Translations under genes and position numbers: made by a program
Notes under the pieces: model-generated
Database searches by the model: none
The model's input: the letters and a program-made list of their open reading frames with translations, nothing else
What the model was told of the DNA's origin: nothing
Shown here: positions 25,465 to 31,758 of the stretch, piece after piece
Layout of the letters: each line of letters opens with the position of its first letter
How positions within the stretch are numbered: the first letter of the stretch is position 1
Assembly (NCBI RefSeq): GCF_015487465.1
Contig: NZ_WFPS01000059.1
Location: 1 to 47,610, forward strand
Direction of reading: 5' to 3'
DNA from: Persephonella sp.
Lineage (GTDB): Bacteria; Aquificota; Aquificia; Aquificales; Hydrogenothermaceae
Length of the DNA: 47,610 nt

Positions 25465-27441
25465 GTGAATTTTGAGATTATAGAGCCTTACATAGAAGAT
25501 ATCTTTAAAAAGTTTTACAAAGAAATCCTATCAGATCAGTTTCTAAAGACATTTTTTACCACTGAAGATCAGATAAAAAATCTTTTAGAAAAACAGATAA
25601 AAAATTTTAAAGAAACCTTAAAAGAAAATGAAAAACAGCTTGAGGCAAGGTATTACAACCTTGGAAATCTGCATTATGACTTAAAAATTCCTTTTGTCAA
25701 CCTTATGTCCGGAATTGATTTTATAAAAAATGAGATATATAAATCCCTTGCTGACAAAAAATTGCTTGATGAATATTTCTTTAGCATCAGCTTATTGTTT
25801 GAAAGGATCAAAAACAGCCTTGCAAAAGCTTACCTTGATAGATCACTTGATGAAATGACAGTTGGGTACAAACCTGAATACAAAGACTATAAGTTCTTTG
25901 AGTATCACCTCCAGTGGCTTGAGAAACTAAATGAAGTGGCAAAATCATTTGATAAAAGCAGACTACCAGAGCTTGACAGTAGACATTGCAAATTAGGTAG
26001 ATGGATAAGATCCAGAGAGTTTTATCTTATATGTGGGGATAACAAAAAATGCTTTGTGATACATAAACTACACGATCTTGTGCACAACACAGGAAGTAGC
26101 CTTGTGTATTACATCTTTCACAAAAAGTTTGTTGAGGCATACCTTCTTTTTAAAACATTAAATAGTCTTTCCCTCAAAATGATGAATGAGCTTTACGAGA
26201 TATACTTTAATTATTTAAACAACAGGGAAGAGAGATTTCTGAATTTTCTGTCAAAAGAGATAGAAAATATAAAATCAGGTTACCTTACGGTTGTTAATAT
26301 AAAAAAATTAAAAGCCATTAACGAGATATACGGGAAAAAAACAGGAGATTACATACTTGATACAGTTGAGAGATTGATAAGGGATAAATTTATAAAAAAA
26401 GATGAAATTTTGATAAAAGGTATTTCAGGTGAATTTTTTATATTCTCAGATGATAAAGAGGACAGCCTGAAAGAAAGGCTTATAAAACTTAAAAAGAATC
26501 TTGAGTCTTATAAAAATTTTCCTATAGGTGTAAAAGTTGTTATAGGGACAGTTCAAATTCCTGAAAATATCAGTCTTTCTCCAGAGGATATAAGAAAAAT
26601 AGTTGGTATAGCAAGGGAAAAAGCAAAATCGGAAACAGGATTTTACTTTGCTGATGCCTTGGAGGTTAAAGAAAAGATAATCCCAAAAATAAACATTCAG
26701 TTGAAGGACTCAGCCTTTGTGACCCAGGCTATAGCAGAGGGAAGGATTGATCTGTTTTTCCAGCCGGTGGTTAATCTGAAGCTGGGGGACACATACGGTT
26801 TCGAAGTTCTTGCAAGGATAAAGAAAGACGGTGGTTATATTAACGCAGGAGCGTTTATAAACCTATTACACAAGTTGGGAATTATAGTTGATCTTGATAG
26901 GCTGGTAATAAAAAAAGTTATCCAGAATGCAGACAAAATCTCAAATATAACCAACACCATATTTGTTAATATCAGCCCAGAATCACTAAAATCTGAAGAT
27001 TTTATCAGCCTTTTAACAGATGGAATAAAAACATTAAAGAGAAAAAATATAAAACTTATCGTTGAGCTGACAGAGCAGTCTTTTCTGGAAAATATTGAGA
27101 TAATAAAATTTCTACATGAGGAGTTTGGTATATCTTTTGCTGTTGACGATTTCGGAACAGGTTACTCATCTTTAAAAACAGTTATAGATCTGACTGATAC
27201 AGGATTGATAGAAATTCTCAAAATAGACGGCAGCCTTATAAGAGACCTTAAATACTCCATAAGAAACCAGAAAATAGTGCGTCTTATATCATCAATGTCA
27301 AGAAACCTGAAAATAAAAACTGTAGCTGAATTTATTGAGAACAGAGAACTTATAAAAACCGTTAGAGAAATGGGAATACAGCTTGGTCAGGGTTATGCCC
27401 TTGGTAAACCAAAGCTGATAGATGAATTTATCTCCGGCTGA
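25465..27441 (+). CDS. globin-like / CZB / degenerate GGDEF / EAL c-di-GMP protein (GTG start)
   Basis: This 658-residue cytoplasmic sensor has four parts. Residues about 5-130 look like a globin-coupled sensor domain, with His70 in YNLGNLHYDLKIPF as the candidate haem ligand. Residues about 140-250 match a CZB zinc domain: His148 (HLQW), Cys175 (CKLGRW), His203 and His207 (HDLVH), spaced as in E. coli DgcZ. A GGDEF domain follows with GISGEFF (319-325) instead of GGDEF, probably inactive. The EAL domain has EVLAR (447-451), Glu534, the DDFGTGYSS motif at 561-569, Lys586, Glu622 and Gln642, so phosphodiesterase activity is likely. Start GTG at 25465. The 3' end overlaps convergent tsaD by 14 bases. 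Confidence 0.88.
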   Translation: MNFEIIEPYIEDIFKKFYKEILSDQFLKTFFTTEDQIKNLLEKQIKNFKETLKENEKQLEARYYNLGNLHYDLKIPFVNLMSGIDFIKNEIYKSLADKKLLDEYFFSISLLFERIKNSLAKAYLDRSLDEMTVGYKPEYKDYKFFEYHLQWLEKLNEVAKSFDKSRLPELDSRHCKLGRWIRSREFYLICGDNKKCFVIHKLHDLVHNTGSSLVYYIFHKKFVEAYLLFKTLNSLSLKMMNELYEIYFNYLNNREERFLNFLSKEIENIKSGYLTVVNIKKLKAINEIYGKKTGDYILDTVERLIRDKFIKKDEILIKGISGEFFIFSDDKEDSLKERLIKLKKNLESYKNFPIGVKVVIGTVQIPENISLSPEDIRKIVGIAREKAKSETGFYFADALEVKEKIIPKINIQLKDSAFVTQAIAEGRIDLFFQPVVNLKLGDTYGFEVLARIKKDGGYINAGAFINLLHKLGIIVDLDRLVIKKVIQNADKISNITNTIFVNISPESLKSEDFISLLTDGIKTLKRKNIKLIVELTEQSFLENIEIIKFLHEEFGISFAVDDFGTGYSSLKTVIDLTDTGLIEILKIDGSLIRDLKYSIRNQKIVRLISSMSRNLKIKTVAEFIENRELIKTVREMGIQLGQGYALGKPKLIDEFISG

Positions 27442-29736: not shown

Positions 29737-31758
29737 TCAAAGGTAATCTTCTGATGGATGCCCAAGGAAATAGCCCTGTCCGTAGTCTATTCCGATCTTT
29801 TTTACGATTTTTAGGATACTTTCGTTCTCTATAAACTCTGCTACCGTTTTTATGTTCAGTCTTTTACACAGAAAAACGATACTTTCAACAAATGCTGTGC
29901 TTTTTGGATCTTTTAGCGACAGTTCTTTTACAAACTCGCCGTCAATTTTTACATAATCTATTGGCAGATGCTTAAGGTAATAAAAAGAGGAATACCCGCT
30001 TCCAAAATCATCAATAGCAAACCTGTATCCCCTGTTTTTAAGTTTTGATATAAGACTTTGGAACTCACCTATTCCTTTTATAGCCTCCCTTTCTGTGATC
30101 TCAAATACTATATCTTCCGGTTTAAGTCCTGATCTGTTTACGATAGAAAAAATGTAATTCCAGAATTGATCGTCAGATAGCTCAGCTGCAGATAAGTTTA
30201 AAAATATTTTGAAATTTTTTTTTGAAGATGCTTTTTTTGTTAAAGCCTTTTTGATTATAACTCTGTCTATATCTTTTACTTTCCCTAATTTTTCAGCAAG
30301 AGTTATAAATCTGTAAGCTGATATTACCTCTCCTGAATGGTCTTTAAGTCGGGCAAGAACTTCATAGGCATGTATCTTTCCAGTTTTTAGATCAACTATA
30401 GGTTGATAATACGGGATAAATAGGCTTTGATCAAGAGCCTCCTGCAGTATGTAAAACTCTTTTCTTTTTTCTTTTATTGTTTGTTTTATTTCCTCCTCCG
30501 TAGGAACATAAACTTTGTTTTTTCCAAGATCTTTTGCCTTATAAAGAGCATTGTCAACGATCATCATCAGTTCTTCTTTAGAAGATCCGTGGGTTGGGTA
30601 TTCTACAACCCCTAAGGAAGCACTCACAGAAATAACGCTTCCGTCAAAAACGCATATTCTATTCTTTTCAAGATTTCTTCTGATCCTTTCTGCCACTTTT
30701 ACAGCTTCTAATAAAGGTGTTTCACTGAGAAGAATAACAAACTCATCTCCTCCTATTCTTGCAACAAGATCCCCATCTCTGATTGATGCTTCCAGCATAT
30801 CTGCAACAGATTTCAGAACAACATCACCTACGTTGTGTCCGTAAGTGTCATTTATGTATTTGAAGTTATCAAGATCAATAAGGATAAGAGAAAATCTGTA
30901 TCCTTTTCTTTTTGCTCTGCTGACCTCGTATCTCAGGAGGTCTTCAAATATTCTTCTATTGTATAGATCTGTTAATGGATCGTGTCCTGCAAAATATTCA
31001 AGCTCTGAAAGTGCTTTAGACAGTGCCCTTGATGAACCTGCAACAAGACCCATTATAGAAAGAAGAGACTGAACCACATCAAGCTCTTTCTTGGGTAGTT
31101 TACTTTTTGATAGAATTATTATTCCTATTATTCCCCCAACGTCCTGTGAATCAGGAAGAAAATTGTATGTCTGCAAGCAGATTTTCTGTTTATTTCCTGA
31201 TGGTTTTTTCTTTGTTACAAAGATTTCTTCAAACTCAATATTTTCTCTATTAAAAAGCTCTTTTTTCAGGTATTCCCTCACTTTTGAGCGGATATCATCA
31301 CCAAATTGAAAGCTGTAAAAAAGATAAACTCTTTTCATGGAATTTTCATTTATTGATATAAAAAACAGGTCAAAAGGATAAACATCAAGCATCTGTTTAA
31401 GGAGCTTAACTGTATAACCTTTCCAATCTGTTATATTTTCCCTTGACAGAACGATTTTTTTTAAGATTTCAGTTTCCTTTTGAAGGAGGCTTTTATCAAT
31501 CACTTCCTTTTCAAGAATTGATACAAGGTCTATTGTCTCAAGACTACCGTTTTTAACAAGTTCAAGGTTTTCATCAAAAACGGTCTGTATTTTTTTAAGA
31601 AGGGTATCGTAAAAAGGAAGATCTTTTTTTTCGCTTTTTCTTAATTCCTGCCTCATTCCCTGGATAAGGGAGTTATACCTGAGAAGGTTTTCCATTATAA
31701 TACCGTTTTTAAGAGCTATCTCTCTCCTAAGATTTTCAAAATCAAGAGACTTTTTCAT
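29737..31758 (-). CDS. GGDEF-EAL cyclic-di-GMP enzyme, both domains intact
   Basis: This 673-residue protein has an N-terminal helical region, a GAF-like sensory region around residues 100-245, and then GGDEF and EAL domains. The cyclase motif GGDEF is at 336-340. The inhibitory-site motif RDGD (RxxD) lies exactly five residues before it. The EAL domain has EVLAR (466-470), DDFGSGYSS (583-591), KIDGEF and the C-terminal EFIENES and YGQGY blocks. Both synthesis and breakdown of c-di-GMP are therefore possible. The start overlaps the stop of the upstream diiron gene by 4 bases (ATGA), so translation is coupled and the two proteins probably work together. Confidence 0.92.
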   Translation of the reverse strand: MKKSLDFENLRREIALKNGIIMENLLRYNSLIQGMRQELRKSEKKDLPFYDTLLKKIQTVFDENLELVKNGSLETIDLVSILEKEVIDKSLLQKETEILKKIVLSRENITDWKGYTVKLLKQMLDVYPFDLFFISINENSMKRVYLFYSFQFGDDIRSKVREYLKKELFNRENIEFEEIFVTKKKPSGNKQKICLQTYNFLPDSQDVGGIIGIIILSKSKLPKKELDVVQSLLSIMGLVAGSSRALSKALSELEYFAGHDPLTDLYNRRIFEDLLRYEVSRAKRKGYRFSLILIDLDNFKYINDTYGHNVGDVVLKSVADMLEASIRDGDLVARIGGDEFVILLSETPLLEAVKVAERIRRNLEKNRICVFDGSVISVSASLGVVEYPTHGSSKEELMMIVDNALYKAKDLGKNKVYVPTEEEIKQTIKEKRKEFYILQEALDQSLFIPYYQPIVDLKTGKIHAYEVLARLKDHSGEVISAYRFITLAEKLGKVKDIDRVIIKKALTKKASSKKNFKIFLNLSAAELSDDQFWNYIFSIVNRSGLKPEDIVFEITEREAIKGIGEFQSLISKLKNRGYRFAIDDFGSGYSSFYYLKHLPIDYVKIDGEFVKELSLKDPKSTAFVESIVFLCKRLNIKTVAEFIENESILKIVKKIGIDYGQGYFLGHPSEDYL

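What the first reader, a model, noticed from the sequence alone, without database searches (positions are those of the whole stretch)
25465..27441. Globin-like plus CZB zinc domain on a degenerate GGDEF-EAL protein
Two separate sensory inputs appear on one c-di-GMP enzyme. His70 sits in a globin-coupled-sensor-like helix. His148, Cys175, His203 and His207 reproduce the CZB zinc pattern of E. coli DgcZ with nearly the same spacing. The GGDEF site is GISGEFF, so cyclase activity is probably lost, while all main EAL residues remain. DgcZ uses CZB to control a cyclase; here CZB would control a phosphodiesterase, and haem/oxygen could be a second input. I do not know of a described protein with this exact order.
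Basis: partly seen in the sequence, partly recalled or inferred. Interest (0 to 1): 0.65.

Follow-up and report, generated by a model that had tools for sequence, protein, structure and literature searches.

The report
Globin–zinc sensor on c-di-GMP phosphodiesterase
A heat-loving vent bacterium (Persephonella) has an enzyme that probably breaks down the signal molecule c-di-GMP and carries both a haem-type oxygen sensor and a zinc-binding sensor; the parts are all known, but having both ligand sites intact in this order on a breakdown enzyme is an unstudied variant, conserved across the genus.

Summary
Window 25465-27441(+) encodes a 658-aa Protoglobin–CZB–GGDEF–EAL protein of Persephonella (phylum Aquificota). 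His70 and Tyr18 align with the haem-proximal His98 and O2-stabilising Tyr43 of E. coli DosC. His148, Cys175, His203 and His207 align with the DgcZ zinc ligands and rank 5, 3, 1 and 2 of 250 N-terminal columns for conservation in 29 non-redundant homologues. The GGDEF site has lost its catalytic metal residues; all eight EAL catalytic residues remain. The order is conserved at one syntenic locus in the genus, and related proteins occur in 41 of 136 Aquificota genomes.

Pfam already calls DosC's middle domain "CZB-like" (zinc ligands gone), so globin–CZB-fold–GGDEF is the ordinary globin-coupled-cyclase plan. Acidithiobacillia carry the same four domains with CZB listed last. What is new is the DosC-like plan with an intact zinc site and a phosphodiesterase output, in a family that keeps the zinc ligands more often than the haem histidine. 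Best reading: an O2- and zinc/redox-responsive c-di-GMP phosphodiesterase. Haem and zinc binding and regulation are inferred. New variant of a known kind.

The parts
25465..27441 (+). Complete gene: 658-aa Protoglobin–CZB–GGDEF(degenerate)–EAL protein, GTG start
   Evidence: ORF; Pfam; orthologues at the same locus in Persephonella
25474..25761 (+). Protoglobin / globin-coupled-sensor domain (aa 4-99 by HMM; helices B, C, E, F, G, H, no helix A)
   Evidence: E 4.5e-7, above cut-off; AF2 pLDDT 88; Foldseek: DosC 4zvb TMt 0.63, BpeGReg TMt 0.66, AfGcHK prob 1.00
25516..25518 (+). Tyr18, aligned with DosC Tyr43 (distal, stabilises bound O2 in DosC)
   Evidence: role of Tyr43 from PMC5549716
25672..25674 (+). 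His70, aligned with DosC His98 (proximal haem ligand)
   Evidence: invariant in Persephonella orthologues; 4 state changes on the family tree
25906..26100 (+). CZB zinc-binding domain (aa 148-212)
   Evidence: 30.4 bits, over cut-off; 26.2 bits; hhalign to DgcZ, 90.6%
25906..25908 (+). Zinc ligand His148 (=DgcZ His22)
   Evidence: conservation rank 5 of 250
25987..25989 (+). Zinc ligand Cys175 (=DgcZ Cys52)
   Evidence: rank 3 of 250
26071..26073 (+). Zinc ligand His203 (=DgcZ His79)
   Evidence: rank 1 of 250
26083..26085 (+). Zinc ligand His207 (=DgcZ His83)
   Evidence: rank 2 of 250
26032..26052 (+). Cys190-x5-Cys196, a second cysteine pair in the loop before the two-histidine helix; absent from DgcZ
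   Evidence: both present in 25 of 41 rows, only one in 2; kept in the zinc-less paralogue
26215..26634 (+). Degenerate GGDEF domain (aa 251-390); signature GISGEF at 26419-26436; guanine-contact residues N286 and D295 kept
26722..27411 (+). EAL phosphodiesterase domain (aa 420-649) with E447 N502 E534 D561 D562 K586 E622 Q642
   Evidence: all eight kept in every full-length EAL member

Best explanation
This is a cytoplasmic, probably dimeric, sensor phosphodiesterase built on the globin-coupled-cyclase plan (globin – CZB-fold middle domain – GGDEF) with an EAL domain added. Inferred mechanism: haem held by His70 binds O2 with help from Tyr18. The CZB four-helix bundle binds Zn(II) through His148/Cys175/His203/His207. 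Both inputs act on the CZB bundle and its long C-terminal helix (222-257), which leads into the GGDEF domain. The GGDEF domain cannot cyclise GTP and serves as a relay, possibly still binding GTP, that sets the activity of the EAL domain, which hydrolyses c-di-GMP. The cell would thus adjust attachment or motility to O2 and to zinc/redox state along vent gradients. Shown: the domain order, ligand and catalytic residues, their conservation, and loss of the cyclase signature. Inferred: haem and zinc occupancy, dimerisation, signal direction and physiological output.
For: Domains by Pfam. Ligand alignment to DosC and DgcZ. Zinc ligands are among the most conserved N-terminal columns. Invariance of H70, C175, H203 and H207 in the orthologue alignment, with H148 lost only in the divergent L016. 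CZB match to DgcZ by hhalign. N-terminal AF2 model with pLDDT 88 and globin plus helical-bundle topology, matched to GCS globins. All EAL catalytic residues kept family-wide while the GGDEF metal residues are lost. Syntenic conservation between atpD and tsaD. 21 EAL matches and 5 PilZ matches in the genome, so a c-di-GMP network exists. Precedents: O2-activated PDE in DcpG (PMC10882959), zinc control of DgcZ (PMC8262984), CZB response to redox through zinc (PMC13370339), middle-domain relay in DosC/BpeGReg (PMC5549716, PMC7033309).
Against: The globin lacks helix A, and relatives have lost His70 (Tyr/Phe/Val), so haem binding is not certain. CZB scores are at the Pfam cut-off. The full-length AF2 model was poor (pLDDT 59.8), so the arrangement of domains is unknown. 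Foldseek E-values for the globin were above 0.05. I found no biochemistry for any member.
Confidence: 0.6

Rival explanations
1. Zinc/redox-sensing phosphodiesterase only: the globin fold is a structural or dimerising remnant that does not sense gas.
For: The haem histidine changes repeatedly on the family tree (4 changes; a 15-member clade lacks it) while the zinc ligands are nearly universal. The globin lacks helix A.
Against: In Persephonella both His70 and Tyr18 are invariant, which is unexpected for a dead pocket.
Confidence: 0.2
2. O2-sensing phosphodiesterase in which the CZB zinc is purely structural, stabilising a DosC-like middle domain at high temperature.
For: DosC works with a CZB-like middle domain that lacks the zinc ligands (I189, A215, D246, N250). 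Zinc affinity of CZB domains is extreme (subfemtomolar in DgcZ, PMC8262984).
Against: The paralogue in the same genome lost the zinc ligands and is still conserved in other species of the genus, so zinc is not needed for the fold even in these thermophiles. Members without haem His keep zinc.
Confidence: 0.12
3. Catalytically silent c-di-GMP receptor (LapD-like) rather than an enzyme.
For: Degenerate GGDEF; the second-best PDB sequence match is a GGDEF-EAL chain named 'cyclic dimeric GMP binding protein' (3pjw).
Against: All eight EAL catalytic residues are present and invariant across the family, unlike in degenerate receptors.
Confidence: 0.05

Closest known systems
E. coli DosC (YddV/DgcO) and other globin-coupled diguanylate cyclases (BpeGReg, PccGCS/DgcO)
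   Same: Globin with His98/Tyr43 equivalents, then a CZB-fold middle domain (Pfam PF21118 'DosC CZB-like middle domain'), then GGDEF
   Different: DosC has lost all zinc ligands, has a longer globin and an active GGDEF, and has no EAL; here the zinc site is intact, GGDEF is dead and EAL is added
E. coli DgcZ (YdeH)
   Same: CZB with the same 3His-1Cys ligands and Trp, placed just before GGDEF
   Different: No globin; active cyclase inhibited by zinc; no EAL
Acidithiobacillia Protoglobin-GGDEF-EAL-CZB proteins (AFE_1712; PMC6416229)
   Same: The same four domains on one polypeptide, conserved across a class of chemolithotrophs
   Different: CZB is listed at the C-terminus; no biochemistry or ligand-site analysis was found in the passages read
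DcpG of Paenibacillus dendritiformis
   Same: Globin-coupled GGDEF-EAL enzyme; O2 favours phosphodiesterase activity (as cited in PMC10882959)
   Different: Bifunctional, and no CZB is described in the cited passage
E. coli DosP and V. fluvialis GCS-HD-GYP
   Same: O2/haem-controlled c-di-GMP phosphodiesterases
   Different: DosP senses through a haem PAS domain; the Vibrio protein uses HD-GYP; neither is described with a zinc-sensing domain

Membership tests
Globin-coupled sensor (Protoglobin, PF11563) | Protoglobin HMM match over cut-off | tested here: met
   30.4 bits against 25; orthologues 26-28 bits
Globin-coupled sensor (Protoglobin, PF11563) | Proximal haem histidine and distal Tyr | tested here: met
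   H70=DosC H98, Y18=DosC Y43, invariant in Persephonella orthologues
Globin-coupled sensor (Protoglobin, PF11563) | Complete globin fold including helix A | tested here: not met
   HMM entered at position 27; AF2 starts at helix B. So it is filed as a globin-coupled-sensor-like domain, not a full member
Globin-coupled sensor (Protoglobin, PF11563) | Haem and gas binding | not testable with these tools
   needs protein
CZB domain (PF13682) | HMM match over cut-off | tested here: inconclusive
   26.2 (hmmscan) and 30.4 (genome scan) against 29.4; orthologue L013 33.1
CZB domain (PF13682) | 3His-1Cys ligand set in register | tested here: met
CZB domain (PF13682) | Zinc binding | not testable with these tools
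   needs protein
DgcZ-like cyclases | Active GGDEF output | tested here: not met
   GISGEF; metal residues replaced by N278 and G322
DosC middle domain (PF21118) | HMM match | tested here: not met
   no PF21118 hit at E<=1; hhalign to the DosC middle domain not significant (E 0.3), though aligned in the same register
EAL phosphodiesterase (PF00563) | HMM match and all eight catalytic/metal residues | tested here: met
   177.9 bits; ENEDDKEQ in every full-length EAL member
EAL phosphodiesterase (PF00563) | c-di-GMP hydrolysis | not testable with these tools
   needs protein
Acidithiobacillia Protoglobin-GGDEF-EAL-CZB | CZB at the C-terminus, after EAL | tested here: not met
   CZB lies at 148-212, between globin and GGDEF

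The most novel reading that the evidence does not exclude
A phosphodiesterase that integrates haem-bound O2 and CZB-bound zinc (with Cys175 and a second Cys pair as redox points) in one signalling bundle, and that shows the middle domain of globin-coupled cyclases to be a CZB zinc sensor whose metal site was lost in lineages such as E. coli. The Aquificota proteins would then represent the older, zinc-holding form.
Probability: 0.3. Interest if true: 0.65.

Novelty: new variant of a known kind. Interest (0 to 1): 0.45.

Why it matters
How the 'middle domain' of globin-coupled cyclases passes the O2 signal is an open question; a natural relative with an intact, removable metal site in that domain gives a handle on it. 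If both sites work, one enzyme would join O2 and zinc/redox sensing to c-di-GMP breakdown in vent chemolithotrophs. The family also offers natural variants (haem-less, zinc-less, cyclase output, phosphodiesterase output) for comparison.

Tried and rejected
First genome-contig scan with the full-length protein found no relative; the second, with the N-terminal alignment, found two Persephonella loci, which gave the genus. A census of the architecture outside Aquificota could not be run: E. coli could not be used as a centre and plasmids gave no match. Full-length AF2 with three sequences was poor and was not used for domain arrangement. Direct hhalign of the orthologue CZB with the DosC middle domain was not significant (E 0.3), so that link rests on Pfam's name for PF21118 and on the in-register multiple alignment. 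The Cys190/Cys196 association is strong in raw counts (Fisher p 6e-9) but rests on about 3 changes on the tree, so it is not phylogenetically significant. The LapD-like silent-receptor reading was rejected because all EAL catalytic residues are intact. An active-cyclase reading was rejected because both catalytic metal residues are lost.

Full report
What is there. The ORF at 25465-27441(+) starts with GTG and encodes 658 aa. Pfam finds Protoglobin (4-99, E 4.5e-7), CZB (148-212, E 1.1e-5), GGDEF (251-390, E 1.3e-8) and EAL (420-649, E 2.8e-52) in that order. Every residue number in the finding is correct. CZB is at the edge of its Pfam cut-off here (26.2 or 30.4 bits against 29.4) but over it in an orthologue (33.1), and the orthologue profile matches E. 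coli DgcZ by hhalign at 90.6% probability.

Organism and spread. Two orthologous loci carry the title Persephonella. Orthologues 60-81% identical over the N-terminal 252 residues occur in 9 of 13 other genomes of the genus, and in the six other Persephonella loci checked the gene lies between atpD and tsaD as in the window, in some with two genes between it and atpD. A profile of the globin–CZB module finds relatives in 41 of 136 Aquificota genomes, in four family groups. Most are 660-690 aa with GGDEF-EAL; another branch of about 420-490 aa ends in an intact GGEEF cyclase.

Ligand sites. In a multiple alignment with E. coli DosC and DgcZ, His70 falls on DosC His98 (proximal), Phe17-Tyr18 on DosC Phe42-Tyr43 (distal), and His148, Trp151, Cys175, Gly178, His203 and His207 on DgcZ His22, Trp25, Cys52, Gly55, His79 and His83. 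Across 29 homologues below 62% identity the four zinc ligands rank 1, 2, 3 and 5 of 250 N-terminal columns, while His70 ranks 34. On a tree built without the trait columns, haem His changes state 4 times. A 15-member clade, including the paralogue in this same genome (L064), has Tyr or Val in place of the haem histidine (two members are fragments without that region); three of its members, L064 among them, have also lost the zinc set (N, S, H, F). The zinc site is therefore the steadier of the two inputs, and the Persephonella orthologues keep both.

Structure. AF2 of residues 1-258 with two orthologues gives pLDDT 88 and pTM 0.82: six globin helices (B, C, E, F, G, H by alignment; no A) followed by a helical bundle ending in a long helix 222-257. 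Foldseek's best hits are globin domains of globin-coupled sensors (AfGcHK, DosC, BpeGReg; probability up to 1.00, TM by target up to 0.66), though with E-values above 0.05. The full-length model was poor.

Output. The GGDEF signature reads GISGEF: the Gly-Gly pair and the metal-binding Asp/Glu are replaced (I320, S321, G322), and the first metal Asp is N278. The guanine-contact Asn and Asp of the family (N286, D295; roles from established PleD knowledge) are kept, so GTP binding without turnover is possible. All eight EAL catalytic residues are present here and in every full-length EAL member. The protein should be a phosphodiesterase, not a cyclase.

Comparison with what is known. Globin–CZB-fold–GGDEF is thus the usual plan of globin-coupled cyclases; in DosC the ligand positions are Ile, Ala, Asp and Asn. 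DosC His223/Lys224, essential and on a pi-helix of the middle domain (PMC5549716, PMC7033309), align shortly after the CZB cysteine motif, which suggests, as inference, that the same part of the fold carries the signal in both. The window protein itself does not match PF21118, and a direct profile comparison with the DosC middle domain is not significant. Four-domain Protoglobin-GGDEF-EAL-CZB proteins are listed for Acidithiobacillia (PMC6416229), globin is named among domains found with CZB (PMC8262984), and DcpG is a studied globin-GGDEF-EAL enzyme whose O2 form is an active phosphodiesterase (as cited in PMC10882959). No study of a protein with the order found here turned up in the searches of the held open-access library; subscription papers could not be searched.

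Mechanism. Inference from these parts: haem/O2 and zinc both act on the CZB bundle, which is joined through a long helix to the dead GGDEF and on to EAL. The sign of each input is unknown; by analogy with DcpG, O2 may raise hydrolysis, and zinc release (oxidation of Cys175, or low free zinc) would switch the bundle as in DgcZ. A further Cys190-x5-Cys196 pair, kept in the genus and in the haem-less clade, and kept even where the zinc ligands are gone, may be a separate redox point; the association is not phylogenetically independent.

Verdict. Real, conserved, and mostly as described, but a variant of known kinds, not a new kind.

Noticed in passing
window 26032-26052 (Cys190, Cys196); L064, L049 and others: A Cys-x5-Cys pair in the loop before the two-His helix occurs as both-or-neither in most family members and persists in the paralogue that lost the zinc ligands; possible disulfide or second metal site.
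   Followed up: partly
L064:1357-3414 (G000 contig C51): Paralogue in the same genome with the same layout but haem His replaced by Tyr and zinc ligands N,S,H,F, EAL intact; also found in other Persephonella.
   Followed up: partly
L036:867-2057, L074:3100-4284, L080:4941-6128: In some Persephonella an MglA-like small GTPase and a Roadblock-like protein (names by my reading of the sequences, not by a family search) are inserted between atpD and this gene, directly upstream of it; absent from the window.
   Followed up: partly
L084:1501-2388 (G000 contig C52): 295-aa protein with a full-length, high-scoring protoglobin (109.7 bits) followed by hydrophobic, membrane-like segments and no output domain that I recognise; sits after a SecA-like gene.
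   Followed up: no
window 29737-31758 (-); L078:2103-3962: A second GGDEF-EAL protein with intact GGDEF and EAL lies near the gene; in another genome (L078) a 41% homologue sits immediately upstream of the globin-CZB gene.
   Followed up: partly
L015:1477-2214: Orthologue in G009 (a 55% complete genome) is cut by stop codons after about 236 aa; possibly a broken gene or assembly error.
   Followed up: no
G000 contig C45 (L001, L003), C27 (L002), C77 (L004): Four further CZB domains elsewhere in the genome, so zinc-type CZB sensing is probably used more than once in this organism.
   Followed up: no
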